Shown piece after piece: positions 3,793 to 60,825 of a DNA stretch of 61,920 nucleotides. Every line of letters begins with the position of its first letter. The stretch's first letter is position 1. The notes beneath the pieces are model-generated. The model worked only from the letters and a program-made list of their open reading frames with translations, ran no database searches and had not been told where the DNA came from. Source of the stretch: a virus; the IMG/VR virus record IMGVR_UViG_3300044833_000104, positions 1 through 61,920 of that record, one strand, 5' to 3'. Both the position numbers and the translations under genes were made by a program.

Positions 3793-3834
3793 CGACATAA
3801 TTATGTTGACTTAAATAAATCGCAGGAATAGGGT
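3793..3834 (+). promoter_or_regulatory. Operator and promoter of the rightward early operon
   Basis: Bases 3793-3808 read CGACATAATTATGTTG, a palindrome with a single mismatch and the same motif as the perfect one at 60804-60819. It overlaps a -35-like TTGACT (3806-3811), with a weak -10 (TAGGGT) 17 bases on. The palindrome also contains CATAAT, which could act as a -10. A dimeric repressor bound here would block the early operon that starts at 3865. Confidence 0.6.
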
Positions 3835-3864
3835 GTCTTCAACGACTTGTTGAGGGTCGCGAAG

Positions 3865-4080
3865 ATGCCAAAATTCCTATCTATAGTCAGGGTTCACTGG
3901 AACCCCCGCATGAGCAGCAAGCGCCTGAAAGAGCTGCTCAACACCCCAAACATCCACGAAGACGATGAGGACGCCATCCTTGGCGAACTCCAAATGCGGG
4001 ACGCTGAAGAGCTTCCGTACGACTATCCGTGCCTCGACTACTCCCTTCAGCGGCACGAAGCCATGGGAGGCCCGCGATGA
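3865..4080 (+). CDS. First early protein, unknown function
   Basis: 71 residues; the ATG at 3865 has GAGGG 8 bases upstream. An in-frame TTG at 3847 is a weaker start. It contains NPRMSSKRLKELLNTPN and an acidic middle. It is the first gene behind the operator-promoter and is joined to the next by an ATGA overlap. No family recognised. Confidence 0.6.
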   Translation: MPKFLSIVRVHWNPRMSSKRLKELLNTPNIHEDDEDAILGELQMRDAEELPYDYPCLDYSLQRHEAMGGPR

Positions 4081-4319
4081 GCGTAGACCTCCGCACGCTT
4101 CCGCCGGTGGGATACAAGCCCGGTACCAATCAGCCGATCTTCTCTACAATCCCGCCCGAGCAGCGCGCCAAGTGGCTGCAGAGATGGGCGCAGATGGACG
4201 CCGAAGGCAAAGAGGCGCGGCACTACACCCGCTATGAGTGGGATCTGCGCAAAACTTTCACCGAACTTGAGACGCGTGAGGAGCAGCTAGACGCGTGCAT
4301 ACGAAAGGGGCACCAATGA
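4077..4319 (+). CDS. Hypothetical early protein
   Basis: 80 residues, starting in an ATGA overlap with the previous gene. Charged and helical (EQRAKWLQRWAQMDAEGKEARHYTRYEWDLRKTF). No family recognised. Confidence 0.6.
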   Translation: MSVDLRTLPPVGYKPGTNQPIFSTIPPEQRAKWLQRWAQMDAEGKEARHYTRYEWDLRKTFTELETREEQLDACIRKGHQ

Positions 4320-4519
4320 TGACCTTGCCTTGGGCTCCAAACCCGAACAAATGCTCCGAGTGCAAAGGCATTGGCTTAGTTGTGCGCCAGGTCCCCTGCG
4401 ACCTCTATACCAACGGCTTCGCTACTGTCGCCGCCACTTGCCCTACCTGTCTTGGATCGGGCCGCAATATGCCCTTGCCGGTGGACGTCAAGCTCCTGGC
4501 TGCCGGGGGTGAGCGATGA
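4316..4519 (+). CDS. Zinc-finger miniprotein (DnaJ-type CxxC)
   Basis: 67 residues with CSECKGIG near the start and CPTCLGSG near residue 48. This is two CxxCxGxG half-sites as in DnaJ zinc domains, enough to bind one zinc. It overlaps both neighbours by four bases. Role unknown. Confidence 0.6.
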   Translation: MMTLPWAPNPNKCSECKGIGLVVRQVPCDLYTNGFATVAATCPTCLGSGRNMPLPVDVKLLAAGGER

Positions 4520-4692
4520 TCAACACGGCTACATACCCCACACTCGCCTCCCAGCCTCCCGCGCAGCAGCCCAACACCCGCGATGCTGCCGTCAACCGCG
4601 CCTTCCCTTGTGCAGCCTGCAAGGGAGCAGGGAGCTGTTCTGTTTGCATGACCCTCTACACCGAAAGCACCTACGAGGACCGCGACCGATGA
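4516..4692 (+). CDS. Zinc-finger miniprotein
   Basis: 58 residues, starting in an ATGA overlap. It has CAACKGAGSC and CSVCM in the second half, a compact CxxC...CxxC pair. Too short for most gene finders, but fully consistent with the overlapping chain of genes around it. Confidence 0.55.
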   Translation: MINTATYPTLASQPPAQQPNTRDAAVNRAFPCAACKGAGSCSVCMTLYTESTYEDRDR

Positions 4693-4889
4693 GCCTCTCA
4701 CTCTCCATTCGACCTACCGATACAGGCGTCTCCATCGAACTCATGGGAATCATCCGCGTTTGCAAGCACTGCCGGATGCCGATACTGCGTGATTTCTTTG
4801 GCTGGAGTCACCCGGAAAACGGCGGCTTCTCCTGGTGCAACATGAGCGACGACAGCGAAGCCAAAGCAGAACCGGCGGTGGCGGCATGA
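4689..4889 (+). CDS. Hypothetical small protein
   Basis: 66 residues, ATGA overlap with the gene before. It contains CKHCRMPI and a later Cys (WCNMS), suggesting a zinc ribbon. Acidic, Ala-rich tail. No family recognised. Confidence 0.55.
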   Translation: MSLSLSIRPTDTGVSIELMGIIRVCKHCRMPILRDFFGWSHPENGGFSWCNMSDDSEAKAEPAVAA

Positions 4890-5074
4890 CACCTGCACAG
4901 CAAATAGCCGGATACCTCAAACTCACCCGCGCCCACTACTACCTCAATGGCCGCCACAGCCCCAGCCCATGCCTAGCTCTGCGGAGTCTCATCGCTTTCG
5001 AGATGGAGTCGGAAATCCTGTTTATAGCGATCGACCTCAAGAACTTTTTGGAATATGACGAGGTGGCGGCATGA
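4886..5074 (+). CDS. Hypothetical small protein
   Basis: 62 residues, ATGA overlaps on both sides. Mostly helical (MTPAQQIAGYLKLTRAHYY). No family recognised; support comes from the unbroken overlap chain. Confidence 0.55.
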   Translation: MTPAQQIAGYLKLTRAHYYLNGRHSPSPCLALRSLIAFEMESEILFIAIDLKNFLEYDEVAA

Positions 5075-5478
5075 ACTACACAATCTATCGCGGTAGTTGG
5101 CGGCGCGGCGGCGACCGTCAAGAGCTAACAGCAGATTTAGGCGACACCTCGCTATACCAAGCCAGAACGAAAATGATGTGCTGTCTGGGCCAGTGCGCCT
5201 TTGAGCTAGGCGTTTCTCTCGAAAAGCTAGAGGATGTTGGCGAGCCAGCGGACGTTTGTGACGAAGAAGATGCCCTCATATTCGGCCGCCTCCTAAACGA
5301 CGAAGAAGATTGGGGAAGGCAGAGCAAATTCTCTAATGAAGCCATTGGGATAAACGACAACGAAGCAATCACCGATAAGCTACGCGAAGAGCTCCTGACC
5401 AAGCTTGCTGTAAATCATGGCCATACGGTGACGTTCGTTGACGGGGTCGCGCCTTGGTTCGCGGAGGTTGCGGCATGA
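5071..5478 (+). CDS. Hypothetical protein
   Basis: 135 residues, acidic after residue 45 (VGEPADVCDEEDALIFGRLLNDEEDW). ATGA overlaps on both sides. No family recognised. Confidence 0.6.
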   Translation: MNYTIYRGSWRRGGDRQELTADLGDTSLYQARTKMMCCLGQCAFELGVSLEKLEDVGEPADVCDEEDALIFGRLLNDEEDWGRQSKFSNEAIGINDNEAITDKLREELLTKLAVNHGHTVTFVDGVAPWFAEVAA

Positions 5479-5678
5479 CCAACCTCTACGGCATGAACGA
5501 CTACTACCGATCCGGCCCGCACGAACCTGACACCCGCGATGACTATGACTCACTGCGCGACGAACCGGAGTGCTGCAACCCTAACTCCGCAACCAGCGAA
5601 GCCAATAGAGAGCAAACACAGAGAGCCAGCAATGTAGCTTGGCGGGCACGCCTGGAGGCCACTCGTGCACAGCAATAG
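5475..5678 (+). CDS. Hypothetical small protein
   Basis: 67 residues, Asp/Asn/Arg-rich and probably poorly folded (DTRDDYDSLRDEPECCNPNS). Starts in an ATGA overlap. No family recognised. Confidence 0.5.
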   Translation: MTNLYGMNDYYRSGPHEPDTRDDYDSLRDEPECCNPNSATSEANREQTQRASNVAWRARLEATRAQQ

Positions 5679-5829
5679 CAACTGGGGCGGCATCTGTGGT
5701 GCAGGCTTCCTCATCGTTCTCTGTGCGGCGATCCTGTGGGCCTCAGAGCATGAGCCGCAGATACTTGCCCTCCTCGAACGTGTGACCAACATGCTCCCAC
5801 CCAAAGGGGACGACTATGACACCTTCTAA
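5665..5829 (+). CDS. Single-helix membrane miniprotein
   Basis: 54 residues from GTG with GGAGG 6 bases upstream. One membrane segment (residues about 9-27, GICGAGFLIVLCAAILW), then a short acidic tail. It overlaps the 3' end of the previous gene and the 5' end of the next, another one-helix protein. The pair could act at the membrane early in infection, but nothing identifies a function. Confidence 0.5.
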   Translation: MHSNSNWGGICGAGFLIVLCAAILWASEHEPQILALLERVTNMLPPKGDDYDTF

Positions 5830-5944
5830 CCTCGCCCTCGGGCTTATTGCCATCGGTGCCGTGATGGTGGCCCTCATCCTTGTCGGCCTCGCCTCCGTGG
5901 CGTTGGACATTGCCCGCGTGTTCCGCAGAAGGAAGGTCCGCTGA
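5816..5944 (+). CDS. Single-helix membrane miniprotein
   Basis: 42 residues. The ATG has AAGGGG upstream. Almost the whole protein is one helix (LALGLIAIGAVMVALILVGL) with a basic cytoplasmic end (RVFRRRKVR). Its stop overlaps the next ATG. Confidence 0.5.
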   Translation: MTPSNLALGLIAIGAVMVALILVGLASVALDIARVFRRRKVR

Positions 5945-6294
5945 TGAAGAGGAAACGCACGAAAGATGCCGTAATGAGTGGGTTTACGCAAGGACCATGG
6001 CAGTTCAACCCTGAGCGCGGCGATATCACAGCGCCGAGCGTCCCGAAAGAGTCCTCCCGCTTAGGTCGCGGGGATGATCGTGACGAAATTTGGAATTACT
6101 ACGGGGGCGAGCTTGTGGCTGAGACGGTTTCGGCATGTGACGGGCCGCTGCTCACCGCCGCGCTGGAACTCTATCAAGCCCTGCGGGCTCTGCGCTCCTT
6201 CATGTGGGCTCAAGGGTACGCGGACCAAACAGCGGAAATGGCGCAAGCAGATGCGGCGATCGCGAAAGTTGAGGCCCGGAGTAAGGCGGGATAG
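5944..6294 (+). CDS. Hypothetical protein
   Basis: 116 residues. A basic start (MKRKRTK) is followed by GPWQFNPERGD, then a C-terminal helical segment of the type LLTAALELYQALRALRSF that recurs in phage early proteins. The gene ends just before the first GGYNN repeat array. Confidence 0.55.
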   Translation: MKRKRTKDAVMSGFTQGPWQFNPERGDITAPSVPKESSRLGRGDDRDEIWNYYGGELVAETVSACDGPLLTAALELYQALRALRSFMWAQGYADQTAEMAQADAAIAKVEARSKAG

Positions 6295-6299
6295 ACATT

Positions 6300-6377
6300 G
6301 ACATGGCGCGGCATAGCTTGGCATGGCACGGCTGGGCGCGGTATGGCGTGACAAGGGTTCCCGCTCTCAGGAGCGGG
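6300..6377 (+). repeat. GGYNN repeat array 1 with terminal hairpin
   Basis: From 6300 to 6359 the sequence keeps a strict 5-base register, twelve units of consensus GG(C/T)NN; examples are GGCGC, GGCAT, GGCAC and GGTAT. Two or three units have lost a G. A hairpin follows at once: CCCGCTC (6360-6366), loop TCAG, GAGCGGG (6371-6377). The array lies in the leader of the gene at 6422, with A-rich sequence and a ribosome site between. Two similar arrays occur at 7050 and 7191. It is not a CRISPR: the units are too short and have no spacers. Confidence 0.85.
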
Positions 6378-6421
6378 GGCAAAACAAAAACGAACAAGAC
6401 CAACAAAGGAGAAATCGCACA

Positions 6422-7036
6422 ATGTACAAAACTCTAAATCGCACACTAACTGGCATCTCACCGATTCTTTTACACAACGGTCGGCTGGCAAACCCGCTCG
6501 ACCCAATGTCGAAGGCAATGAAGGAAGTAAGCGCTAAAAAGAAAAAGACCGATGACGACCACAAACTGATGTCAGACATTGAGTGGCTCGGTTCAATCTA
6601 CACAGCGAGCGAAATCAACGTGACAATTCGCGGCTATAACGTTGCCGTCAAGTGCGACGGACCTGTCTGCATACCGGGCGACAACATCTCATCCATGCTC
6701 GCACTTGCAGGTGCAAAGTCGCGCCGGAAACAAGCATTCACGGCTGGCGTGTTGGTGGATGGCGATTTCCCCTTGCAATACTCCGGCCCCTCAACTCTCG
6801 CAGAGTTGTTTGCGAAGCCCGCATATCGATACATCAAGGGCTGCCGAATCGGCCAGTCGCGTGTCATGCGAACGCGGCCAATTTTCCGTTCGTGGAGTTT
6901 ACAAATTGCAATTCAGTATCTGTCGGATTTGTTGAATCCGAATGAGGTTGATGAAGCATTGACGCTTGCAGGCGCACAGATTGGCTTGTGTGACTATCGC
7001 CCGAGGTATGGACGGTTCTCGGTGCAAGCCGCATAA
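6422..7036 (+). CDS. RAMP/Cas7-like protein (tentative)
   Basis: 204 residues, with AAAGGAG about 12 bases upstream. Three features recall the RAMP (Cas7-type RNA-binding) fold: an N-terminal strand and loop TLTGISPILLHNGRL; a central CIPGDNISSML at the place where Csm3/Cmr4 proteins have IPGSSLKG; and a C-terminal glycine/arginine loop YRPRYGRFSV like the G-rich loop of Cas7. It is shorter than most Cas7 proteins. No other CRISPR gene or array was seen. The gene is flanked by GGYNN arrays on both sides, which makes an RNA- or ssDNA-binding role attractive. The fold assignment is motif-based inference; that it is a real gene is well supported. Confidence 0.6.
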   Translation: MYKTLNRTLTGISPILLHNGRLANPLDPMSKAMKEVSAKKKKTDDDHKLMSDIEWLGSIYTASEINVTIRGYNVAVKCDGPVCIPGDNISSMLALAGAKSRRKQAFTAGVLVDGDFPLQYSGPSTLAELFAKPAYRYIKGCRIGQSRVMRTRPIFRSWSLQIAIQYLSDLLNPNEVDEALTLAGAQIGLCDYRPRYGRFSVQAA

Positions 7037-7049
7037 AAAGCCTTTTCAG

Positions 7050-7170
7050 GGTGAGGCAGGGCAGGGCAAGGCGTGGTCCGGTTTGGCAGGGCGAGGTGCG
7101 GCGGGGTTAGGTATGGCAAGGGCTGTTGCATCTTCCGAGATGCCGTAAGTTCCCCGTCCGAAAGGGCGGG
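7050..7170 (+). repeat. GGYNN repeat array 2 with two hairpins
   Basis: Fifteen consecutive 5-base units from 7050 to 7124, every one beginning GG, third base usually C or T and the last two free. Then hairpin GCATCT-TCCG-AGATGC (7128-7143, a UNCG-type loop) and hairpin CCCGTCC-GAAA-GGGCGGG (7153-7170, a GNRA loop). The array starts 14 bases after the stop of the RAMP-like gene. Confidence 0.85.
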
Positions 7171-7190
7171 ACACATTAGAAGTTTTGTTG

Positions 7191-7287
7191 GGCAACGCAC
7201 GGCAGTGCAGGGCGTGGTTAGGCATGGATGGGCCCGGTCTGGTTCGGCTTGGTATGGCAAGGAGTTCGCATCCTCCGGGGCGCGAAC
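7191..7287 (+). repeat. GGYNN repeat array 3 with hairpin
   Basis: Fifteen 5-base units from 7191 to 7265, two of them with a first-base change (CGCAC, TGCAG). A hairpin follows: GTTCGC (7264-7269) pairs with GCGAAC (7282-7287), with an inner CC/GG closing the same TCCG loop as in array 2. It ends in the leader of the gene at 7312. Arrays 2 and 3 share the 3' end GGTATGGCAAGG. Confidence 0.85.
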
Positions 7288-7311
7288 AAAAATTCTAAGT
7301 AAGAGGTTTCG

Positions 7312-7758
7312 ATGCTTTCAAAATATCCGTTTGACTGGGAAGAGCTTCAAAAGGGCGACATACTAACTACCGAAGAATTGCAGCGAATCACCGGCAAGAC
7401 GCCGGGGTCAGATGAGTTTCGTTTCGCATGTATGACGTTGCAGTCGCTGATTCAAGACAAGACCGGCTTCACCGTCAAGTTGAAAGGCGACGAGACTTTG
7501 CAGGTTCTAACAGACGCGGAAGCAGCAGAGCATAATAGCCGCCTCTTCGGACAGTTCATGCGATCGATGGTGTCTCGTCATGCACTCAACTGCGAGGTTG
7601 ACGTGGACAATCTGAATCCAACGTCACGCGCGAAACATGATCGGACGCTAGTCACTCAGTCGCGCTACGTTTCCGCAATCGTACAAACGACCAAGGAAAT
7701 CAGGATAGCCAAGCGCGATGAAGTGCCGGGTATCGAATCGGAGACGGAGGCCCACTGA
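7312..7758 (+). CDS. Partner of the RAMP-like gene, unknown function
   Basis: 148 residues, with AAGAGG 7 bases before the ATG. The N-terminal 75 residues look like a small winged-helix or similar domain (DILTTEELQRITGKTPGSDEFRFACMTLQ, split by a predicted turn, then a hydrophobic LQVLTDAEAAEHN). The C-terminal half is helical and basic. It is preceded directly by array 3. Gene order RAMP-like, array, this gene suggests one functional unit. No enzymatic motif was seen. Confidence 0.65.
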   Translation: MLSKYPFDWEELQKGDILTTEELQRITGKTPGSDEFRFACMTLQSLIQDKTGFTVKLKGDETLQVLTDAEAAEHNSRLFGQFMRSMVSRHALNCEVDVDNLNPTSRAKHDRTLVTQSRYVSAIVQTTKEIRIAKRDEVPGIESETEAH

Positions 7759-8036
7759 TGGAAACCTCTCGCCGCATCCGCGAAGTCCATGAGCGCAGTC
7801 AGGAAGAAGTCGCCAGGCTGCTTGCCATCTCGCAGGCCCAGGTAGCGCGTGCAGAGCAGTCAGCTTTACGCAAGCTGCGCGCCAACCCCGAAGCGAAGCT
7901 GCTGATGCGGTATGTCTCCCAGCACCACACCGGCGGTACTTCTCCCTACGTGGAGCCAGCGCTCATGCGAAAGTTCGGCGCCGGTTGTGAAGATGCCAGC
8001 TTTCTTACTATCAGCGGTTTTGCACCCAATCTTTAA
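7758..8036 (+). CDS. Sigma-70 region-4-like HTH protein
   Basis: 92 residues. Residues 13-41 (SQEEVARLLAISQAQVARAE, then SALRKLR) match the helix-turn-helix of sigma-70 region 4, including the AxxKLR end. No region 2 is present, so it is not a full sigma factor. It may steer host RNA polymerase, as phage activators and anti-sigma mimics do. It overlaps the previous stop by one base. Confidence 0.65.
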   Translation: METSRRIREVHERSQEEVARLLAISQAQVARAEQSALRKLRANPEAKLLMRYVSQHHTGGTSPYVEPALMRKFGAGCEDASFLTISGFAPNL

Positions 8037-8051
8037 AAGGAGAAACACACA

Positions 8052-8609
8052 ATGTTAATGACAGAAATTCGCAAGCAGTCCCTAGGCGTTATTGAGCAGG
8101 TCAACGATGGTATCGCCGACCTCGCACGACAGGCTGAGGAGATTCTTGGCTATGGCGTGCTTTCAAGAAACTTCGTCACAACCGCAATCGAACTCACCAC
8201 TCTGCAGACTGCGCTCAAGGAACTCGATATCGATGTGATGGTTCCCGGAGATGTTCAGCATTACCAGAAGGAGCGGCAGATCGAGCAGACCAAGGCCAAT
8301 TTTGAAGTTTGGCTGAAGGATTTCATGTCTTCCGGTACGGCAGGTCGCTACAACCGATTCGATGGCCCTGCTTGGGTCGAGGAGAAGATTGCCGAGTACA
8401 AGCAGCCCATCCCGGAGTTTGTGCTGGCGAAGGCCGTTCAGATAAAGCAGCGAGTTCCGGACTGTGAGATTTACGTGGAATACCTGTCCGATCATCCGGA
8501 CCCGTTCCTCATCATAGCGATCCCAGAAGGTCGGCCTTACTACCCCGCGAAAGAACGCTACCACGTTGAGGTTTGGGCAGAACCGAAGTTCGAAGGTCGT
8601 ATCCGCTAG
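8052..8609 (+). CDS. Hypothetical protein of the recombination block
   Basis: 185 residues, ribosome site AAAAGGAG. The N-terminal half is helical. The C-terminal part (from about residue 120, VLAKAVQIKQRVPDCEIYVE to the end EVWAEPKFEGRIR) looks like a separate small beta-rich domain. It sits directly upstream of the ERF annealing protein. Function unknown. Confidence 0.6.
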   Translation: MLMTEIRKQSLGVIEQVNDGIADLARQAEEILGYGVLSRNFVTTAIELTTLQTALKELDIDVMVPGDVQHYQKERQIEQTKANFEVWLKDFMSSGTAGRYNRFDGPAWVEEKIAEYKQPIPEFVLAKAVQIKQRVPDCEIYVEYLSDHPDPFLIIAIPEGRPYYPAKERYHVEVWAEPKFEGRIR

Positions 8610-8670
8610 AGCAACGCCGGGGTGCGCATGGCAACGCACAAATCTTTTGGAACCACGGAAAGGAATACCC

Positions 8671-10139: not shown

Positions 10140-10438
10140 ACCTCTTCCGCATCCCTACTACCATCCGCAAGGTGTCGAAGCGCCGCAAGGCACGCTCTGG
10201 TAAGCCAGGGAAGCTCGGCATCGTGCGGCTTTATGGGGCTGCCAAGACAGCTTTGCGCCGGCACTGCTATGAGCGGGACCACGAACGGTGCGTCGTGTGC
10301 AAGAAGTGGCTCCCGTTCGAAGGGCCACTGATGGAGCGCATGCACATGGCGCACGTAGAAGGAACGGGCCGCGCTACAAGATGCTTGGCAACTCCATGGC
10401 CGTGCCGGTCATCCGGTGGATCGCTAGGAGGATTTTAG
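10136..10438 (+). pseudogene. HNH endonuclease, 3' end replaced
   Basis: Residues 1-75 look like the beginning of an HNH nuclease: LRRHCYERDHERCVVCKKW gives the first Cys pair and MHMAH the first catalytic His. After about residue 78 (EGTGR) the expected second Cys pair and final His are missing, and the frame runs into the remains of a different gene. It overlaps the exonuclease by ATGA. Probably inactive. Confidence 0.65.
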
Positions 10439-14327: not shown

Positions 14328-14552
14328 ATGAAACGAAGCGTTCCTTGGCTACGGCTATCGGAATGGGTTGCAACTACATGGGAGCTACAGGCGTCTTTTA
14401 CGCCATCAGAGTCTGCAAATCATGGCCACTGTTCTGGTTTAGCAGTGTTCGGATGGTTTGGAAGCGTGGCAATCTTCGCGCTTGTCGTGACTCAATTACG
14501 GAAACGCGGGATCTTTCCCGGCGAAAAGAAAGCTGAGGCCTCTCATGAATAA
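14328..14552 (+). CDS. Small membrane protein
   Basis: 74 residues, with GTAGGAGAG before the ATG. One membrane helix near residues 42-58 (VFGWFGSVAIFALVV), basic after it. It overlaps the next gene by eight bases. Function unknown. Confidence 0.5.
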   Translation: MKRSVPWLRLSEWVATTWELQASFTPSESANHGHCSGLAVFGWFGSVAIFALVVTQLRKRGIFPGEKKAEASHE

Positions 14553-34831: not shown

Positions 34832-37800
34832 TTACCGTTGCGGCGTGCGCTTGATGCGCTCCGCGTTGACTTGAACCGCATTACTGACGGCAGATCCATG
34901 CACGGCAATGAGCGCTGCGCGGGTGCGCTGCTCAGTCAACACTGGATCAGTGCCGCGGGCATCGATCGTGTAATAGGCGGTGTTTCCCGGCGAGCCCTGA
35001 CCGCGCCGTGCCGCCGTGTTGCCCGCAATCTGGCCTGACGCCGCAGCCATGGTCGATGTAGTCCCTCCCATCGTGTAAGCGCTGCTTGGCGCAGTTACGG
35101 TGCCACCATCGGCATAGCCTACCCAGCCGCCGGCGGCAAAACCGGGAGCCTTACCGACCTTGCCGCCCTTATTGATGTGGTTCAGAAGCCCCTTGAACTT
35201 AGCCGCGGGAGCGGCCCGAACGACGAACTCTCCATTCGATAGCTTCGCCGGAATACTGTCGCTCGTTCCAGTGCCAGGGCCGGAGATGGGGCCGCCGCCG
35301 GCAGCGGCAACGGCGGCCATATCAGCACCACCACCACCACTGTCGCCGAAGAGACTACTCAAGTCGAAGCCGCCACTACTCCCGCTACCTCCGCCACTTC
35401 CACCCGTACTGCCACCGCCACCGAGAGCTTGAAGAAAACTGCCGCCGCCGCCACTACTTCCGCCAGCACTCTTCACCCAGAACGGGTTACCCTGCGAGCC
35501 ATCTGGTTTGGAGGAGGTCTGCTTGCCGCCAAAGATGCCGCTAATCATCGAAAGTAAGCCGTTGCCAATACCGGTAACGCCGCCGCCACCGCCAGAGCCT
35601 CCTCCAATGCCAGCGCCGCCGTCGCCACTACTATCGCCACCACCATCGTTCTGGTCCGGTCCAATGCCCGTTATGGCATCGCCGACGCTTGACCCAATTC
35701 CGGTTATTGGAGTGCCGCCGCCACCGCCGCCCCCGCCATCGTTTTGATCAGGCCCGATGCCGGTTATGGCATCGATGCTGGGTAGACCCGGGATGCCGTG
35801 GCTGCCCCCGAGGCCGAGAGCGTCACCGCCAGGGGAGGTCACGCCGGTGCCCATGACGCCGGTGCCGATACCGAGAGCGCCTCCCTTGACACCACCGATA
35901 CCACTAGCCGCCCCCAGCGCCACGCTAAGGGGGTTGCTCTGTGAACCGCCGCCCGTTCCCCCCATCCCGCCGCCCGCTGCCATCTGTACCCAAAGCGGAT
36001 TGTTTTGCGATCCGTCCGGCTTGCCCTTCATGGCGTTGCTGAGATTGCCGAGAGGTCCGGAGAGGGACGGGAACGCCTTGCCAAGCGCGCTAAGGCCCGT
36101 TTGCATACCCTTCTGAATGGTCTGGTTGACCATCTGCCGCCCGATGTCCTGAAACATCTGCGCGAAACTCGTTTTGCCACCGGTGACAAGTTGCGTCAGG
36201 TTGTCCGAAAGTTTGGTGAACGCTGAATGCAACGCGTCGTAGATTACCTGACCGGCAGTTATGGCCGACTTCTGCATGTCGAGAAAGAATGCATTCACGC
36301 CATCGGCAGCGGTGCCTTCGGCGAGCAACGACTTGACCGTTTCGTCGATCAGGTGGTTGAAGTTCTCCTGTTCCTTCATCGCGATTTGGAGGCTTTGCCC
36401 GTAGCTGATGACGCCACCTTGGACCTGTTTCAACGCCGCTACTGTGTCAGCCAACTTCTCCTGTTCGAGCGCATATTGCTCTGCGGGAGACTTGAGTGCG
36501 CGGGCGTTTTGCAGGTCAGACGCACGCTTCTCCTCCTCGTTCAGGGCGACCATTGCCGCGCGTTGGGCAAGTAGCTGATCTTTCAACCCGCCGGACGCCG
36601 CTCCTGCAATCTGCACGTCGAGCGCATACAGCTTGGCCGCGAGTGCTGCATCATCTTGCGCCGCAAGCGAGCCGAGGATGGCATCGTTTACGATCTTGCG
36701 AGCTGCGAGTTCCTGTTGCAGGTTGATGATGTTGCCCTGGATGGACTGACTCTCTTTGGCTACCGACTCCGCATAGATTTCCTGTGAGCGTGTGAGGATT
36801 TGCGCAAGGCTTCCGCCCTTCGCCCTCAGTTCATTCCACGCCTGGGTGACTGCAGTCTGGCGGAGGACCGCATCCGACCCCTTATCCATCGCCTGGACCA
36901 TGAGGCCAGATTGGGCGATGCTCAAGGCCGATGCGCGGGACGTCGTTCCCAGCAGATTGAGGAGCGTCGTCTTTGCTTCGTTGTCCGATATCTGGGCGTT
37001 CTTCTCCCGGATGAGCGATTGCGTTGCCTGGTCGACCAGCGATGCATAGTCCTTTGTCTTCGCGCCCGTCTGCTTGGCAATCTCCTCGCCGAGCTTCATG
37101 ATTTCGTTGCTGGCTTTGTTGGCTGCAGCTACCTTGCGCTGCGCCTCCTCCTCAAGGCCGGCCGCGGCAAGCGTCTGCTTCGATTCGTCCAACTTCTCCT
37201 GCAGATTCGCGAGCAGCTTTCCGACCGGGCTTTCTTTCTGCTTGCCAAGGCCCGAGGTATCAGGAGGCGGCAGGCCGGGAGGTGGTTTCACCGTGCTCAA
37301 CGGGGAAGCGGGCTTCGTATCTTTCGCGACGCGCTGCTTCTTCGCCTCGTTCAGTGCACCGATGACAAACTTAGGCGTCAAGGCTTTATTCAGCCGATCG
37401 TTCGCACCTTTCAGCCGCTCGATTGCCTTGTTGACGAAGTTTCCGACGTAGCCATCGAGCCTATCGTTTGCCCCCTTGAGGTCCACCGCCTGCACGAGGG
37501 GATTCTGCGTAATCCACCTGACTACGCCGGACCACAGCGCCTTAATCTCATCCATCTGCCCCTTGAAGAACTTCACCGTTCCATCTACCGCCCAACCCAT
37601 CGCGATCCATGCTGCGTTCCATATATCGCGAAGCTGGTAGACGGAACCGCCGAGGCTGAAGGTGGCATCGCGGAACTTATAGATGGCGACACCGAGGCCG
37701 ACGAGTGCCCCAATTGCCAGGGTGATCGGTCCACCTATCGCGGCGAGGGCTCCGCCGAAGACATAGGTTGCAGCGGCACCGATGCCCTCTTCGGCAGCCA

Positions 37801-38878
37801 GCAGCCCGACGAATGAGGCAGTGTATTTGAGCCATGCGCCGAACTCAGCCAGAACCGGAATCACCTTGCTCAAACCCAGGCCGCTGATGACCAGCTTCGA
37901 TATTCCCGCTCCGACCTTCTCGATTCCACCTCCAGCCAGATCGCCGATGACTGGAATGGCAATTGCGGCGATCTTTAGCCCCGCCAACGTCTCTAATGCC
38001 TTCGTGAGGCCGTGGGCATGCTGTGTCGCGAAGTCGAGCGCATCGCCCAGCAGGTGAATCGCGCCAGTTACTTTCTGACCGAACTGCGCAGCGAGGTCGG
38101 GCAGATTCATATTCGTCGCGACGCTTTGCAGTTTGCCGATGAAGTCGGAGAGCGCCGGGAGCACTGCGCTGAGCAGAGAAAAGCCCATGCCCTTCAAAAC
38201 CATGTGCAGTTCTTCGATTCGCTCTTTTGCCTCGGCCGATACCTGTGCGGTGGAAGTGCCGATCACCAATCCGAAGCGATGAGCCTCCTCATTGACAGCA
38301 GCCTGCTCCTTGCCGAGCTTGTTGAGCATGGGAATCAGCGCTGCGCCGCCTTTTCCGAACAGCGCCATCACCAAGGCTGTTTTCCCAGCCCCGTCGCCCA
38401 TCTTGGCGACCTTGATCGCAACCTGCTCCATCATGACGCCGGAATCTTGCAGATGCCCCTTGGAATCAGCGACGGTTACGCCAAGCTTGCCGAAAATCTT
38501 CTCTAGCTGCGAATTGCCGTTCTGCGCCTTTAATGCGGAGACGCTGAGCCTCTCCAGCCCCTTGGTAACCGTCTCAGTTGCAACTCCTGTCAGCTTCGCC
38601 GCATAGCTCAGCACCGACATTGTCTCCGCCGTGGTGCCGGCAGCCGTCGCCATCTTGCCCATAGCGTCGGCAGTTTCGAGAGCGCCGTTGATCGCAGCGA
38701 TCGTGCCCGTAGCAATAGCGCCAGCCATCGCGATGCCAGCGACGGCAATCCTATCCAGCGATCGCTTGATGTCGTTGGCGGTTTTGGCCGACAGCGAGCT
38801 CATCTTGTCCATCGATTGCGAGAAAGAGGCAGTGTTCGCCTTCAGATCGATGGTCAAGACGCCCACGACTACTGACAT
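34832..38878 (-). CDS. Tail tape measure protein
   Basis: 1348 residues, the longest gene; its length should set the tail length. The N-terminus (VLTIDLKANTASFSQSMDKM) has the lambda gpH style. Hydrophobic segments lie near residues 280-400, and coiled coils follow. From about residue 1000 it is a Gly/Ser-rich low-complexity stretch with ITGIGPDQNDGGG twice and KPDGSQ-x-NP-x-W repeated. It ends YYTIDARGTDPVLTEQRTRA. The C-terminal motif recurs in the small protein at 44783. Confidence 0.9.
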   Translation of the reverse strand: MSVVVGVLTIDLKANTASFSQSMDKMSSLSAKTANDIKRSLDRIAVAGIAMAGAIATGTIAAINGALETADAMGKMATAAGTTAETMSVLSYAAKLTGVATETVTKGLERLSVSALKAQNGNSQLEKIFGKLGVTVADSKGHLQDSGVMMEQVAIKVAKMGDGAGKTALVMALFGKGGAALIPMLNKLGKEQAAVNEEAHRFGLVIGTSTAQVSAEAKERIEELHMVLKGMGFSLLSAVLPALSDFIGKLQSVATNMNLPDLAAQFGQKVTGAIHLLGDALDFATQHAHGLTKALETLAGLKIAAIAIPVIGDLAGGGIEKVGAGISKLVISGLGLSKVIPVLAEFGAWLKYTASFVGLLAAEEGIGAAATYVFGGALAAIGGPITLAIGALVGLGVAIYKFRDATFSLGGSVYQLRDIWNAAWIAMGWAVDGTVKFFKGQMDEIKALWSGVVRWITQNPLVQAVDLKGANDRLDGYVGNFVNKAIERLKGANDRLNKALTPKFVIGALNEAKKQRVAKDTKPASPLSTVKPPPGLPPPDTSGLGKQKESPVGKLLANLQEKLDESKQTLAAAGLEEEAQRKVAAANKASNEIMKLGEEIAKQTGAKTKDYASLVDQATQSLIREKNAQISDNEAKTTLLNLLGTTSRASALSIAQSGLMVQAMDKGSDAVLRQTAVTQAWNELRAKGGSLAQILTRSQEIYAESVAKESQSIQGNIINLQQELAARKIVNDAILGSLAAQDDAALAAKLYALDVQIAGAASGGLKDQLLAQRAAMVALNEEEKRASDLQNARALKSPAEQYALEQEKLADTVAALKQVQGGVISYGQSLQIAMKEQENFNHLIDETVKSLLAEGTAADGVNAFFLDMQKSAITAGQVIYDALHSAFTKLSDNLTQLVTGGKTSFAQMFQDIGRQMVNQTIQKGMQTGLSALGKAFPSLSGPLGNLSNAMKGKPDGSQNNPLWVQMAAGGGMGGTGGGSQSNPLSVALGAASGIGGVKGGALGIGTGVMGTGVTSPGGDALGLGGSHGIPGLPSIDAITGIGPDQNDGGGGGGGGTPITGIGSSVGDAITGIGPDQNDGGGDSSGDGGAGIGGGSGGGGGVTGIGNGLLSMISGIFGGKQTSSKPDGSQGNPFWVKSAGGSSGGGGSFLQALGGGGSTGGSGGGSGSSGGFDLSSLFGDSGGGGADMAAVAAAGGGPISGPGTGTSDSIPAKLSNGEFVVRAAPAAKFKGLLNHINKGGKVGKAPGFAAGGWVGYADGGTVTAPSSAYTMGGTTSTMAAASGQIAGNTAARRGQGSPGNTAYYTIDARGTDPVLTEQRTRAALIAVHGSAVSNAVQVNAERIKRTPQR

Positions 38879-55319: not shown

Positions 55320-55330
55320 CGCTCTCTCCC

Positions 55331-55669: not shown

Positions 55670-55836
55670 CGTTCGCTCCTGTGCTTGGTGGCGTTGGTGG
55701 CCTTCACTGCGTCGCCCTTATGCTCTTTGCAGTATCCGATGTTGTGCTTGGTGGGGTGTCGGTAGAGCGCAGGCTTGCCGCAGTGGCAGGTCTCGGGGTC
55801 ATGGCGCCGCTTTCCATTCCTATTCAATACGTCCAT
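55666..55836 (-). CDS. Small Cys/His protein
   Basis: 56 residues from the ATG at 55836 (GAGGGAAA upstream). CHCGKPALYRHPTKHNIGYC looks like a single zinc finger. No family recognised. Confidence 0.5.
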   Translation of the reverse strand: MDVLNRNGKRRHDPETCHCGKPALYRHPTKHNIGYCKEHKGDAVKATNATKHRSER

Positions 55837-55940
55837 TTCGTTTCCCTCTGTTGAATTGGCCAATGAGATTTGTTTTTGAAGTGCCGACGCTATGGAAGCC
55901 GTCGGCGCTCAAGGGGCTATGGGTTCTGCGTTGCGTTGGG

Positions 55941-56345: not shown

Positions 56346-56730
56346 GCGGCGGGAATTTCCAGTGGATGATGTCGCCGCTGAATGGGAGCCGCTCTACCGG
56401 CCAAAATCGCATCATCGCAAATAGGTCCGCAAAACCATCACGCACCGCCAAAGCCTGCATCTCATCTGCCGCAAGCACTTCCCCGTCGACGGTGATGCGG
56501 TGGTGGTTGCGCTCACGAGGGCCAGCCTTTACCAGTTCAATCGTGATGTCCTGTACGCGCGTGATGGTTGACTGGATCACCTTGCGGCACTGCTTCGTCC
56601 GCATGGCGTAGTAGCCGTAGAACGTCTGTCCAGGCTTGGGGCGGTTCTGACGCTTGCCGCGGATGGTGTGCGTCTTGGCCCCACTCTCTACGAATGGCAC
56701 AAACTGCTTCTGGAAGCTGTAGGCTGGCAT
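56338..56730 (-). CDS. ASCH-domain protein
   Basis: 130 residues. SFQKQFVPFVESGAKTHTIR and the following KPGQTFYGYYAMRTKQCRKV form the ASCH fold with its conserved basic residues. A later strand has VLAADEMQALAVRDGF. ASCH proteins bind nucleic acid or modified bases. Joined to the next gene by overlapping stop and start. Confidence 0.75.
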   Translation of the reverse strand: MPAYSFQKQFVPFVESGAKTHTIRGKRQNRPKPGQTFYGYYAMRTKQCRKVIQSTITRVQDITIELVKAGPRERNHHRITVDGEVLAADEMQALAVRDGFADLFAMMRFWPVERLPFSGDIIHWKFPPHE

Positions 56731-57020
56731 TATGCTGCCTCCGCGAACAATTCGAAGATGTGCCAGACGAACACACGATCAAACACTGTGCCCAAATAGC
56801 AGGGGTTCTTTGGCAGGCAGTGACCGGTTCCAGCGATATGAAAACGCCGCTCGATCGGCGCAGCATCAGCATCGATGAGGCACCAGAGGGTGACGACACC
56901 GTTCTGCATCCCAACGTGTTGTATGCCCGTCGACGGCGGAATTTGCCTGCTTACCGTGTCATCGAAGACGACGCCATTTACATCGAACAGTGGGTATTTG
57001 TACATCCTCAGATCAGCCAT
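56730..57020 (-). CDS. DUF7352-like small protein
   Basis: 96 residues. LWCLIDADAAPIERRF, GTGH, and CYLGTVFDRVFVWHIFE are the usual marks of a widespread small phage family of unknown function. Overlaps both neighbours by a few bases. Confidence 0.65.
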   Translation of the reverse strand: MADLRMYKYPLFDVNGVVFDDTVSRQIPPSTGIQHVGMQNGVVTLWCLIDADAAPIERRFHIAGTGHCLPKNPCYLGTVFDRVFVWHIFELFAEAA

Positions 57021-57643
57021 TACGCCGCCTCTTTCTTGAATCCCTCAGCCTTGCGCTTCGTGTACAGTTCCACCCACTTCCGCTCGATCTTCTCCCCAGC
57101 AACTGCACGGAAGGATTCCAACTCGTCCAACTCCTCCGGCGGCCGAGTCAGGTCCAACGCAGGATGCGCCCAAACTGCCTCGAGCCCGGCGCGCGCGCTT
57201 CCGTAGCCCATGTCGCACAGCGTCGCCATGACGAGGTCCGGGAAGACTGGAGGCTCCACAGGTGGGTTGCCGCGGTTGGTGAGCTTGCGGCCATGCCGGC
57301 GCTGCGCGATGATCAGCTTGCGGAACCACTCCCTGGCCTCGCATTCAAACTGCGGCTCTGAGGGTGCGCTGGCATACCGGCGAATCTCCGCGACGGTGGG
57401 GCGGAACGGCGAAGACTCCAGCACCTGCGTCAGAGCTGCATCGAAGCGCTCCTCACCGATCTCTGCCAACGTTTTGAGCCACAAGCTGAGCATGAGGTCT
57501 CTCGAAGAGGGATCGAGCGGTTGTGATTGGGTCAGCGCCTCCGCCATCGCTATCCGGCTGAGCATCCAGAGCTCGGTTGCGTCTGAGGGCGAGAGTTGCG
57601 TTTGTGCTGTCGGCGATATCCGCCGCTCGGTTCGGTTTTCCAT
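57020..57643 (-). CDS. Helicase-loader-like replication protein
   Basis: 207 residues. SLWLKTLAEIGEERFDAALTQ and VLESSPFRPTVAEIRRYA match the small helical N-terminal domain of phage loader proteins (usually FPTVAELR). It probably helps load the DnaB helicase encoded at 19.7 kb. Its first 63 codons overlap the 3' end of the replication-initiator-like gene in another frame. Confidence 0.65.
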   Translation of the reverse strand: MENRTERRISPTAQTQLSPSDATELWMLSRIAMAEALTQSQPLDPSSRDLMLSLWLKTLAEIGEERFDAALTQVLESSPFRPTVAEIRRYASAPSEPQFECEAREWFRKLIIAQRRHGRKLTNRGNPPVEPPVFPDLVMATLCDMGYGSARAGLEAVWAHPALDLTRPPEELDELESFRAVAGEKIERKWVELYTKRKAEGFKKEAA

Positions 57644-58454
57644 TGCTGCCTCCGGGTTGATTTCCAAACTTGTCAGTGCGGGCCGAGGCCCAATTCAAGG
57701 CGCGGCCCACCCATGCGCTCAACGGGTCCGAGTGCGAGACTGGACTGTTGGCGCGGTTATTCAAAAGCGTTTTCCATTGCTCGAGCGTGAACTTTGGGTT
57801 TTTCTTCAGAAATGCGCTGAGCCTTCCCGCCTCCTGGCCATCCCACGGCTCTTCGCTCAGAGTCGGGTTTTTGTGGAGAAAATACTTCCGGAACGCATCG
57901 CGGAACTCCTGATGCCGAGGATCAGGCACCTTCGCCGGCTTCTTCACTCGCTCGCCGACAGGCGGGTGAGAAGGTTTTTGCTCTTGGGGTTGTTGCTCTT
58001 CCACGAAAGCAGAAACAGAGACAGAAACAGAAGGCTTTATTTTCGTGGTGTTTGGCTTTTGTTTGGGTTCCGTTTCTAAACCCGTGGCTTTATTTTCAAA
58101 ACCCAACGCTTTTTTAGGACGTCCACCAAGCCTGCCATTGCCTGACTGTTTCGCGCTGAACTCAGCCTGCTTTTCAGCCTCGCGGATCATCCGAATGTTG
58201 GCGCGCAGACCGGACTCGACGATGGGGAATTTACCTAAAAGCATCTCGCGGCTGATAGCCCACTGCTCGGGGCTCATCCGTGCCCAGCGGCGTAGCTTGT
58301 TCTCGTCATCCGGCAAGTAACCGTGGCGGTCCTGCTGCCATGCGATGCACAGCAATAGCGTGTAGGCTCCCACCTCGTTCAAGTCCATCGACTGAACGTC
58401 TGGCGAAGCCATGAAATCACCTGGATAGAAACGAAAAGCCGGTGACTTACCCAT
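57453..58454 (-). CDS. Replication protein, DUF1376 type
   Basis: 333 residues from the ATG at 58454. The N-terminus AFRFYPGDFMASPDVQSMDL and EVGAYTLLLCIAWQQDRHGYLPDD is the DUF1376 domain, a winged-helix found in phage replication initiators. A Lys/Pro-rich linker and a second small domain (LSAFLKKNPKFTLEQWKTLL) follow. Probably recognises the phage origin. Confidence 0.75.
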   Translation of the reverse strand: MGKSPAFRFYPGDFMASPDVQSMDLNEVGAYTLLLCIAWQQDRHGYLPDDENKLRRWARMSPEQWAISREMLLGKFPIVESGLRANIRMIREAEKQAEFSAKQSGNGRLGGRPKKALGFENKATGLETEPKQKPNTTKIKPSVSVSVSAFVEEQQPQEQKPSHPPVGERVKKPAKVPDPRHQEFRDAFRKYFLHKNPTLSEEPWDGQEAGRLSAFLKKNPKFTLEQWKTLLNNRANSPVSHSDPLSAWVGRALNWASARTDKFGNQPGGSNGKPNRAADIADSTNATLALRRNRALDAQPDSDGGGADPITTARSLFERPHAQLVAQNVGRDR

Positions 58455-58845
58455 CGACGTCCAACCCTTCCAAATCTTCTTCACCCATCAACATCTCCAT
58501 CGGCTCATCCATCGACACCCGCGGCGCTATCAGGAACCGTTGCGCGCCTGGAACCCGTGTGAACATCCCCCGAGCCTTCATGCCGCCGTCCATGACCGTC
58601 TGGGAGTTGCCGTAGACCATGGGCTTCAAGATCACCGATCGAGCGTCCGGGGTCATAGCCCGCAACCGGTCCTCGCCTCCAAGTCTCCGCAACCGGCGGA
58701 AGGGGATGCCGAGCTCTTCGGCGTAGAGGCGTGCGGAGCTAATTGCGGGGCCAACTCCTAAGCACTTCTTGCACCCACGCGTGGTTCTAGCGTCCATCAA
58801 GCCATCACAGTGGGGGCACTTTATCTTCTGGGAGGGGTGGGGCAT
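58447..58845 (-). CDS. Zinc-finger protein upstream of the replication gene
   Basis: 132 residues from the ATG at 58845. CPHCDGLMDARTTRGCKKC is a zinc ribbon, then a basic helical middle (GIPFRRLRRLGGEDRLRAMT). The end is acidic. DNA binding is plausible. Confidence 0.6.
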   Translation of the reverse strand: MPHPSQKIKCPHCDGLMDARTTRGCKKCLGVGPAISSARLYAEELGIPFRRLRRLGGEDRLRAMTPDARSVILKPMVYGNSQTVMDGGMKARGMFTRVPGAQRFLIAPRVSMDEPMEMLMGEEDLEGLDVDG

Positions 58846-59900
58846 TAGGCGGGCACCTCGGCGAAATCTGAAGCTGTGAAGAAAAGGCCCTGCGCTGGCT
58901 TCAGGCATGCGGGGCTGAACCAGATGCGTTCACGCCCAGCATTCTCTCTGCCGGTTCCTTCGCCCTGTGAGCCATAGCCGCCGCGAGACTTCCACGCGAC
59001 ACACTCCCAGCTATCCGGCATGTCGTGCTCGCCGTCATAGCCGCACAGCGCAATGCGCAGATCCCGGTGGCTTCCGTTCTCTATCGCCCAGCGGCGGACC
59101 TCATGAGCGACGTCTGATGAGTCCGAGGCGTAGAGGTCATCCTGCCGCCCGGCGGTGTCGGCGTAAGGCGGATCGAGGAAGACACCCGTGATGCCATGCT
59201 TGAAAGTCACAGAAGGGCCGCAGATGCGTTCCCAGTTGCCACAGCACACTCGCACCTTGCGAAGTCTGTCGGCGAGCTGTTGCATGTAGGCCAAGAGAGG
59301 CGTTCCCGAGGTGCGGTCGCTTACGCATGCTTCCACGCCCGTGCCCGCGTCCCCGAGGTGAGGTAGCTGCCTGTTTACTCCTCGGCCCGCGTCCCCGAGG
59401 TGAGGTAGCTTACGGTGTACGCCCGTGCCCGCGTCCCCGAGGTGAGGTAGCTGCCTGTTTACTCCTCGGCCCGCGTCCCCGAGGTGAGGTAGCTGCACCG
59501 AGCACCATCCCGATCCAATCCATATGCACTGTCCCCATACCCACCAGCCTGCAATCTTCGCATCGTAAAACTCCGGTTCCACCTTCATTCGTTCGCGAAA
59601 CTCTTCCTGTCCGCAAAGCCATAAATGCCGCGCGTGCTGATCCGCCTCGTTCACTGGGCTATCGGCATACTCCGCGACTGCCTCGGGGTCATGCTGCAGC
59701 GCCCTCCAAAAGTTGGCCACCATGCAATCCAAGTCGTTGACGGTCTCTATGCCGCGTTGGCTCTCGCGTCCCAACAGCACCGCGCCAGAGCCAAAGAAGG
59801 GCTCGACGTAATTGGGAACGTCACCAAGGCGCGACCAAACAAGATCGCTGACGCGAGATTTTCCTCCGAACCAAGGAAACGGGGCCTTGAGAAGGCTCAC
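58845..59900 (-). CDS. dam: DNA adenine methylase (D12 class) with repeat insert
   Basis: 351 residues. KAPFPWFGGKSRVSDLVW and YVEPFFGSGAVLLG are the AdoMet site, and VFLDPPYAD is the catalytic DPPY. Between them, at about residues 138-193, lies a fourfold 14-residue repeat (LPHLGDAGRGVNRQ-like) coded by 42-base repeats. Methylates adenine, probably for self-protection or regulation. Confidence 0.88.
   Translation of the reverse strand: MSLLKAPFPWFGGKSRVSDLVWSRLGDVPNYVEPFFGSGAVLLGRESQRGIETVNDLDCMVANFWRALQHDPEAVAEYADSPVNEADQHARHLWLCGQEEFRERMKVEPEFYDAKIAGWWVWGQCIWIGSGWCSVQLPHLGDAGRGVNRQLPHLGDAGTGVHRKLPHLGDAGRGVNRQLPHLGDAGTGVEACVSDRTSGTPLLAYMQQLADRLRKVRVCCGNWERICGPSVTFKHGITGVFLDPPYADTAGRQDDLYASDSSDVAHEVRRWAIENGSHRDLRIALCGYDGEHDMPDSWECVAWKSRGGYGSQGEGTGRENAGRERIWFSPACLKPAQGLFFTASDFAEVPA
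59326..59504 (-). repeat. Four 42-base tandem repeats inside dam
   Basis: Four copies of a 42-base unit, each with the shared core CGCGTCCCCGAGGTGAGGTA on the plus strand. Copies 1 and 3 and copies 2 and 4 are the closest pairs, so an 84-base double unit seems to have been duplicated. All copies stay in frame, adding four 14-residue units to the enzyme. Confidence 0.9.
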
Positions 59901-60226
59901 GCCGTCACCTCGAGATACTCAACCGGTATGCCGAGTTCATGGGCGATGGCAATCTCAGCGGCAACGCCTCGGCTCACGGTCCAGCCGTCCATCATTGCGA
60001 CGATGACCTTGGAGCTTGCGGCAATGAACTCATGATCAAACTGCTTCCAGTAGTCCCAGCAGCGCGGAAGTTCACACCGGACGGCTATCGGATGGGTGTG
60101 CGCAATGGGACAGAAGATGACAAGGCCCGTCGCCATCAGACGCCCGGCGATCCGGCATACTTCATCGAACCGGCGCTCCTCGACAGCGTGGTCGGGGCGA
60201 GAGTAAGGGCTTGCGAGATAGATCAC
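59897..60226 (-). CDS. Nucleoside 2-deoxyribosyltransferase-like (DUF4406/DUF1937)
   Basis: 109 residues from GTG at 60226, overlapping the previous stop. IYLASPYSRPDHAVEERRFD, ARLMATGLVIFCPIAHTHP-like and IVAMMDGWTVSRGVAAEIAI are the fold's marks, with the Glu nucleophile in AAEI. It could remodel nucleotides or make a signalling molecule. No substrate can be inferred. Confidence 0.7.
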   Translation of the reverse strand: MIYLASPYSRPDHAVEERRFDEVCRIAGRLMATGLVIFCPIAHTHPIAVRCELPRCWDYWKQFDHEFIAASSKVIVAMMDGWTVSRGVAAEIAIAHELGIPVEYLEVTA

Positions 60227-60603
60227 GCAGCCTCCCGCTTCTCGCCCACGACCATGCAAATCTCAATGACCAACCGTGTCTGCACCTCATCGAAGAAGCC
60301 GATATGGCAGTCCCTCGGGTCGATCCCTATCTCTTGCGCAAGCCAGCGGTAAGCGGCTTTCCTTGTGGGATCGGGCGGCCAACCGTTCGCAGGCCCAACC
60401 ATCCCCCATAGTTGGTTGAAGGCGACGTAAGCGCGCTTCTGCAGCCCTCGCAGCGATTCCTTTGCCAGCCGCCCCATCGGCTTGAGCGTTGGGCTTCCCG
60501 GATAAATCTTCACCCAGGCCCTACAGCGACGGCATGACCACTTTCCATCCCCGAACTCCGCGGGGTCGTTGCAGTAGGGGCACCGTGGCTCCGCAAGGCT
60601 CAT
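60223..60603 (-). CDS. DUF3268-like zinc-finger protein
   Basis: 126 residues. CPYCNDPAEFGDGKWSCRRC and CRAWVKIYPGSPTLKPMGRL are the zinc site and its tail in this family. DPTRKAAYRWLAQEIGID follows. A widespread small phage protein of unknown role. Confidence 0.7.
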   Translation of the reverse strand: MSLAEPRCPYCNDPAEFGDGKWSCRRCRAWVKIYPGSPTLKPMGRLAKESLRGLQKRAYVAFNQLWGMVGPANGWPPDPTRKAAYRWLAQEIGIDPRDCHIGFFDEVQTRLVIEICMVVGEKREAA

Positions 60604-60731
60604 CGGCCACCGGCCTTCGTAAGCCAGCGCTCAAACTGTTTCTTCTCAATAAAATCGCGTAGCCGCAGGCAAACGAAGGGCAACCCAATGACGCAAAGGG
60701 CTGCGCAGAACAACGCAAGGTCCAAATACAT
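60600..60731 (-). CDS. Single-helix membrane miniprotein
   Basis: 43 residues from the ATG at 60731, with GGAG about 10 bases upstream; an ATG at 60785 lacks a ribosome site. One membrane helix (YLDLALFCAALCVIGLPFVC), then a basic tail. It is the first gene of the leftward operon, behind the operator at 60804. Confidence 0.5.
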   Translation of the reverse strand: MYLDLALFCAALCVIGLPFVCLRLRDFIEKKQFERWLTKAGGR

Positions 60732-60803
60732 GTTGAGTCCGCTCCAAGGTCGGTGAGAACAGACACTAGCACCGATGATGGACATATTTCAACAAAATTA
60801 TCT

Positions 60804-60825
60804 CGACATAATTATGTCGTTGACA
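60804..60825. promoter_or_regulatory. Operator palindrome and -35 element between the two operons
   Basis: CGACATAATTATGTCG (60804-60819) is a perfect 16-base palindrome, followed directly by TTGACA (60820-60825), a consensus -35 for the rightward xis-int unit. On the other strand GATAAT lies just beyond the palindrome and may be the -10 of the leftward operon. The same palindrome with one change occurs at 3793. GACATAT half-sites repeat on both sides. Confidence 0.75.

What the first reader, a model, noticed from the sequence alone, without database searches (positions are those of the whole stretch)
3793..60825. The same 16-base operator at both control regions of the phage
CGACATAATTATGTCG is perfect at 60804 and has one change at 3793. 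At both places it touches a TTGAC element and faces an early operon. This is the layout of lambda OL/OR, but the sites are single and the repressor is not obvious.
Basis: partly seen in the sequence, partly recalled or inferred. Interest (0 to 1): 0.7.

Follow-up and report, generated by a model that had tools for sequence, protein, structure and literature searches.

The report
Shared repressor sites of soil phage
A circular phage genome from a metagenome carries the same small palindromic DNA switch site, in pairs, at the two places where its early gene blocks and integration genes start; a related phage keeps these sites, so this is very probably its lysis-or-dormancy control region, although the protein that binds it is not yet known.

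Summary
CGACATAATTATGTCG is perfect at 60804 and has one change at 3793; 0 of 100 shuffles gave three matches at up to 3 mismatches. The record is circularly redundant (127-bp end repeat), so the sites lie about 4.8 kb apart around xis-int and a small operon. "Single sites" is wrong: each region holds two adjacent 14-bp sites (60791/60805; 3794/3808). A model built only from a relative's sites ranks exactly these four first in the window. That relative, G001 (terminase 94% identical), keeps the sites at both control regions and in its int promoter. The sites do not follow the xis-int type: G001 has other xis-int and the same sites, G002 the same xis-int and other repeats. Both regions also share a second block at identical distance, best read as a leftward extended -10 promoter; at the right-hand region it would make a conserved structured RNA, not the minus-strand protein suspected. 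Best reading: operators of one dimeric regulator that shuts the early operons, lambda-like in logic. The regulator is unidentified; the winged-helix-like 2410 protein is first suspect, on position only. New member of a known kind.

The parts
60791..60804 (.). left control region, operator site A (AACAAAATTATCTC, 3 mismatches to the palindrome core)
   Evidence: 16-mer at 60790; ranked 4th in the window by a model made only from G001 sites; ATTATCTC half kept in G001
60805..60818 (.). left control region, operator site B, perfect palindrome GACATAATTATGTC inside the 16-mer 60804-60819
   Evidence: ranked 1st by the G001 model
60820..60849 (+). promoter toward xis-int, TTGACA-N18-AATAGT
   Evidence: 10 of 12; same -35 and GGGCAATAGTTG kept in G002
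60763..60792 (-). proposed promoter of the leftward early operon: extended -10 TGCTAGTGT (60763-60771), weak -35 TTGAAA (60787-60792)
   Evidence: block shared with 3745-3762 at the same distance and with G001 at both regions; start not mapped
60600..60731 (-). first gene of leftward early operon, 43-aa membrane-type protein
   Evidence: sequence; similar short gene in the same place in G001 and G002 by eye
60223..60603 (-). DUF3268 protein, leftward early operon
   Evidence: Pfam PF11672 E 1.2e-18
60849..61094 (+). excisionase-like small protein (start codon uncertain: this TTG overlaps the predicted -10)
   Evidence: 71% identical relative in G002 upstream of int; no family match; label by position
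61075..61920 (+). tyrosine integrase, first part; continues across the redundant end to 448
   Evidence: ORF across the join; Pfam PF00589 E 2.3e-14
1..448 (+). tyrosine integrase, second part
793..821 (+). proposed promoter of the 920-3493 operon, TTGTCT-N17-TACTGT
   Evidence: kept in G001; below the threshold of the scan (0 found)
920..1099 (+). 59-aa protein with signal-peptide-like start
   Evidence: 59% identical in G001; nearly unchanged DNA over its 5' end
1133..1882 (+). polytopic membrane protein
   Evidence: 50% identical in G001; hydropathy
1886..2413 (+). 175-aa protein, no family
2410..2781 (+). 123-aa protein, N-terminal long helix and winged-helix-like C-terminal half; regulator suspect
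   Evidence: 49% identical in G001; low-confidence model, mean pLDDT 57; no meaningful family match, no fold match
3520..3745 (-). proposed leftward structured RNA gene (about 0.2 kb); fold tested on 3640-3748
   Evidence: folding z -4.95 here and -3.91 in G001 on the minus strand; base stem kept with G-U changes; terminator-like site 3535-3522 on minus
3752..3760 (-). extended -10 TGCTAATGT of that RNA's promoter
3794..3807 (.). right control region, operator site 1 (GACATAATTATGTT)
   Evidence: ranked 2nd by the G001 model
3808..3821 (.). right control region, operator site 2 (GACTTAAATAAATC), between -35 and -10
   Evidence: ranked 3rd by the G001 model, which was built partly from the aligned G001 site GACTTAAATAAGTC; kept in G001
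3806..3834 (+). promoter of the rightward early operon, TTGACT-N17-TAGGGT
   Evidence: aligned TTGACT-N18-TATGGT in G001; below the threshold of the scan
3865..4080 (+). first gene of rightward early operon, 71 aa, unknown
   Evidence: 80% identical in G001; low-confidence model, no fold match
7758..8036 (+). 92-aa protein with sigma-70 region 4 / HTH-like stretch, second regulator suspect
   Evidence: Pfam PF04545 E 3.1e-05, just under cut-off; 64% identical in G001

Best explanation
The palindromes are paired operators of one homodimeric transcription regulator, most likely the phage's immunity repressor. At the right-hand region one site lies between -35 and -10 of the rightward early promoter and its neighbour overlaps the start of the -35; at the left-hand region the pair fills the space between the leftward early promoter and the xis-int promoter. 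Bound protein would therefore hold down the early operons and gate xis-int. Shown: the sites, their pairing, their position and their conservation in G001. Inferred: that a dimer binds, that it represses, that it is phage-encoded. Who binds is open; my order is the 2410 protein of the int-proximal operon (about one in three), another phage protein such as 7758, and a host regulator.
For: Rarity. A model from two G001 sites ranks the four window sites 1-4, and a model from two window sites ranks G001's left-region site first, its int-promoter site second and its right-region site fourth. In G001 the consensus at up to 2 mismatches hits three places only, 48595, 48861 and 52741, all in control regions: the left one, the int promoter TTGACAAATTTATGTC, and the right one. 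The combined block-plus-operator pattern has one hit in IMG/VR outside the window, in G001. Site 2 at the right sits inside the promoter in both phages, where a repressor would act. The sites do not follow the recombination module: G001 has a different xis and int with the same sites, G002 the same xis-int with other repeats.
Against: No CI-, Cro- or Rep-like protein was found among the proteins tested (not all genes of the window were tested). Only one relative holds both regions. Terminase relatives G003-G005 and G008-G010 were scanned and lack the pair, but their control regions were not located. A sequence model cannot tell repressor from activator; site B and site 1 sit about 40-44 bp upstream of the predicted rightward starts, which would also suit an activator. 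G001's right region is partly direct repeats rather than palindromes, and that repeat array is not exceptional for its genome.
Confidence: 0.72

Rival explanations
1. The sites are bound by an activator (CII-like or other) that switches on promoters lacking a good -35, above all the leftward extended -10 promoters.
For: The leftward block is found at all four control regions (two phages) with a weak or no -35, and the first half-site lies a near-constant 19-23 bp upstream of it (distances read from those outputs).
Against: At the right region a conserved site lies inside the rightward promoter, and G001 has one in its int promoter; a leftward promoter with -10 GATAAT inside site A is an alternative start.
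Confidence: 0.13
2. The sites are bound by a host regulator (LexA-like or other) that the phage has recruited.
For: No obvious phage repressor; such recruitment is known in other phages (recalled).
Against: Narrow conservation, and G002, from the same sample as G001, has other repeats at the same promoter. The host is not identified, so its regulator sites could not be examined.
Confidence: 0.1
3. The sites are arm-type or Xis sites of the recombination machinery.
For: One region lies directly upstream of xis-int.
Against: The second region is 3.3 kb past the end of int; the sites stay when xis and int are replaced (G001) and go when xis-int is kept (G002). G001 carries a tRNA-like 3' end just after its int, read by eye (ARAGORN finds no whole tRNA), so its attP is probably there.
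Confidence: 0.04
4. Chance palindromes in A+T-rich promoter DNA.
For: Both lie in the most A+T-rich 60-mers of the genome; 8 exact copies elsewhere in IMG/VR look like chance.
Confidence: 0.01

Closest known systems
Phage lambda OL/OR operators with CI and Cro (defining features recalled; papers seen in search listings only, among them PMC5880393, whose abstract gives two sets of three operators about 2.3 kb apart)
   Same: Two control regions flanking an interval, same operator type at both, overlapping early promoters, several sites per region
   Different: Two 14-bp sites per region instead of three; 4.8 kb apart; int and xis lie inside the interval; no CI or Cro homologue found; a structured RNA gene starts at the right-hand region
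Mycobacteriophage BPs repressor gp33 operators (PMC4557955: abstract, section 12 and passages read)
   Same: The 12-bp palindromic half site CGACATATGTCG has the same arms CGACAT/ATGTCG as the window palindrome; sites come in pairs, one good and one divergent; several promoters controlled
   Different: The arms are 4 bp further apart here (AATT inserted); no close 12-mer of the BPs kind in a control region of the window or G001 (best has 2 mismatches); the paper places attP inside the repressor gene, not tested here
Cluster A mycobacteriophage stoperators (PMC9283540, PMC6550527: abstract starts in a search listing only)
   Same: Phage repressor sites tied to immunity
   Different: Stoperators are numerous and spread over the genome; here the clear sites are confined to the two control regions

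Membership tests
lambda-type OL/OR-CI switch | same operator at two early control regions | tested here: met
lambda-type OL/OR-CI switch | three sites of about 17 bp in each region | tested here: not met
   two 14-bp sites per region found
lambda-type OL/OR-CI switch | CI/Cro-type HTH genes between the regions | tested here: not met
   no HTH family for 1133, 1886, 2410, 2813 or the xis-like protein; the 59-aa protein at 920 was not scanned
lambda-type OL/OR-CI switch | repressor binding and looping | not testable with these tools
   needs protein
BPs gp33-type operator | 12-bp palindrome CGACATATGTCG | tested here: not met
   best matches in window and G001 have 2 mismatches and none lies in a control region
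BPs gp33-type operator | gp33 homologue present | tested here: inconclusive
   the two accessions tried for such phages were not held; of 10 window proteins scanned in PHROGs only 7758 gave transcription-regulator hits, all weak
Cluster A stoperator system | many copies across the genome | tested here: not met
Host LexA operator | same motif at host lexA/SOS genes | not testable with these tools
   host not identified; both genome-contig scans gave no relative
Int/Xis arm sites | sites belong to the recombination module | tested here: not met

The most novel reading that the evidence does not exclude
The switch uses a repressor of an undescribed family (the coiled-coil/winged-helix-like 2410 protein, encoded with a secreted-type small protein, a polytopic membrane protein and a 175-aa protein in one int-proximal operon), and the same operators also control a structured leftward RNA that runs against the end of that operon. 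Lysogeny would then be set by an unusual repressor plus an RNA, possibly with an extracellular or membrane signal.
Probability: 0.15. Interest if true: 0.8.

Novelty: new member of a known kind. Interest (0 to 1): 0.42.

Why it matters
It gives a ready-made, testable control region in a phage group far from any named phage (terminase about 33% identical to the best listed of 1735 matching records, all below 60%). The window, G001 and G002 look like one phage group with at least two operator types, the usual sign of immunity groups. If the regulator is a new family, it widens what is known of lysogeny control outside the few model phages.

Tried and rejected
Exact palindrome in IMG/VR: 8 contigs, read one by one, none with the context. 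The shared block in IMG/VR: 10 contigs, G+C 0.30-0.42, none with the palindrome beside it by eye. Relatives by xis-like protein: 1; by gene 3865: 1; by 2410: only G001 in IMG/VR, none in genomes; by the membrane protein: none in genomes, none in 8 terminase relatives, none in phages or plasmids; 2410 none in phages or plasmids. The terminase found 10 contigs, 8 of them new; I fetched 6 of these 8, leaving out the two shortest, G006 and G007. Dam relatives: the tool kept the best 80 of 154; apart from G001 and G002 none of the other 78 shares the control region; one weak DUF3268 hit and three stray motif matches were seen. HARE-HTH family in four relatives, G001 included: none. Structure models of 2410 and 3865: mean pLDDT 57 and 59, no fold match at E<=0.001. 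Rfam: none in the window. Solved structures with the 2410 alignment: nothing below E 0.03. Integrase in plasmids: only distant hits, no help with the host.

The 12-bp-period direct repeats in G001 looked striking but other 48-mers of the same genome score as well, so I do not lean on them. G001's random-sequence control (20 Markov sequences): random maxima averaged 12.9 and reached 17.1, so the window model's top G001 site (21.4) stands out, its second (16.7) less, and 52741 (12.4) does not on score alone; it counts because it aligns with the promoter. A site in G010 at 14480 scores 16.7 and is unexplained.
Full report
Observation. The window is a whole IMG/VR virus record with a 127-base direct repeat at its ends, so it reads as a circle of 61,793 bases. 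The integrase runs across the join (Pfam PF00589). On the circle the two sites are about 4.8 kb apart and enclose xis-int and a small rightward operon.

Anatomy. Trimmed to 14 bp the motif is GACATAATTATGTC. Next to 3794-3807 lies GACTTAAATAAATC (3808-3821), and next to 60805-60818 lies AACAAAATTATCTC (60791-60804), so each region has two abutting sites. This was tested across genomes: a weight matrix from two G001 sites ranks 60805, 3794, 3808 and 60791 first to fourth in the window; a matrix from 60805 and 3794 ranks G001 48595 first, 48861 second and 52741 fourth, with a site outside the control regions, 41907, third. Against 20 random sequences of G001 composition the first score stands out, the second is borderline and 52741 is ordinary.

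Promoters. Rightward of 60804, TTGACA-N18-AATAGT points to xis-int and its elements are kept in G002. Rightward of 3793, TTGACT-N17-TAGGGT points to the early operon that starts at 3865 and aligns with TTGACT-N18-TATGGT in G001; it is below the scan's threshold. A second shared block, AGAACANACANTAGCACC, lies exactly 47 bp left of both palindromes. Random 20-mer pairs of the window reach 16 or more identities in 36 of 2,000,000, and the two blocks have 16 of 20. On the minus strand it reads TGCTANTGT, like an extended -10, and it is present at both G001 regions. In the left region it would serve the leftward early operon; scan also offers a leftward promoter with -10 GATAAT inside site A, so the leftward start is not settled.

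The right-hand leftward transcript. The ORF at 3465-3788 has no relative in the G001 piece searched. The strand folds well, z -4.95 in the window and -3.91 in G001, against -2.58 and -1.70 for the plus strand. The twelve base pairs of the lower stem (columns 36-47 with 84-95) are all kept, two by a one-sided change to G-U, which would break on the plus strand, and one by a change on both sides. The rest of the fold aligns poorly: of 39 pairs of the window fold, 17 are the same, 7 changed but kept, 11 broken and 4 gapped. A covariance model finds it only in the window and G001 among 19 sources, apart from its own reverse strand in the window at 25.5 bits and matches with E above 0.3. I read it as an RNA gene of about 0.2 kb ending near a terminator-like site at 3535-3522; two sequences are thin support.

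Relatives. G001 (59.5 kb) is syntenic, with terminase 94% identical. Its left region holds GACATAATTATCTC and an inverted copy; the int promoter holds GACAAATTTATGTC; the right region holds GACTTAAATAAGTC inside the promoter. Its xis and int are of other types. G002 (18.3 kb) has the window's xis-int at 71% and 82% protein identity but at the same promoter another inverted repeat, read by eye, and no GACATAA sites. So the sites go with neither xis nor int. More distant terminase relatives lack the pair. The combined pattern has one hit in IMG/VR, in G001.

The regulator. The operon between int and the right region (920 to 3493 in the window; to 2410's relative in G001) has four genes kept at 43-59% identity and ends at a terminator-like hairpin, read by eye. 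By position it is where an immunity repressor would be expected. The 2410 protein has a long N-terminal helix and a helix-helix-hairpin half in a low-confidence model; families, solved structures and folds are silent. 7758 is a clearer HTH/sigma-4-like protein but lies in the rightward early operon. I therefore leave the regulator open, with 2410 first.

Comparison. It works like lambda OL/OR but fails two tested defining features, three sites per region and a CI/Cro gene in the interval. The closest sequence likeness is to the BPs repressor half site CGACATATGTCG, which has the same arms 4 bp closer together and also comes in unequal pairs (PMC4557955, section 12). I found no print record of the 16-mer or the 14-mer (open-licence PMC full text only). 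The host is unknown; Acidobacteriota was a guess and is not used. One paper on viruses of that phylum was looked at in passages only (PMC11924767; 'repressor' and 'operator' do not occur).

Noticed in passing
window about 868-958 and the aligned stretch of L026 before and into 10,568: About 85 bases with one change around the start of the 59-aa secreted-type protein are nearly unchanged between window and G001, against much lower identity around it; a conserved hairpin GCAAGGCGC...GCGCCTTGC type follows before the membrane-protein gene. RNA-level function or recent exchange possible.
   Followed up: partly
window 920-2781: Secreted-type small protein, polytopic membrane protein, 175-aa protein and coiled-coil/winged-helix-like protein in one operon beside int, kept in G001; looks like a signalling or lysogeny module. 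2410 and the membrane protein have no relative in the phage, plasmid or genome searches made.
   Followed up: partly
window 59300-59500 (inside dam gene 58845-59900): Tandem repeat of a 'QLPHLGDAGRGVNR' type unit inside the Dam methylase, with a different copy number in G002.
   Followed up: no
L051 14451-14510 (G010): GACATAAATAAGTC with a further inverted repeat ATGTCAT...ATGACAT in the most A+T-rich 60-mer of G010, just upstream of the relative of window gene 34832-38878.
   Followed up: no
L026 about 10,215-10,275 (G001): tRNA 3'-end-like sequence after int, probable attP in a tRNA gene; read by eye, no whole tRNA found by ARAGORN.
   Followed up: partly
window 6300-7150: Repeats of the 'ggcatggcacggctgggcgcggtatggc' type between early genes.
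   Followed up: no
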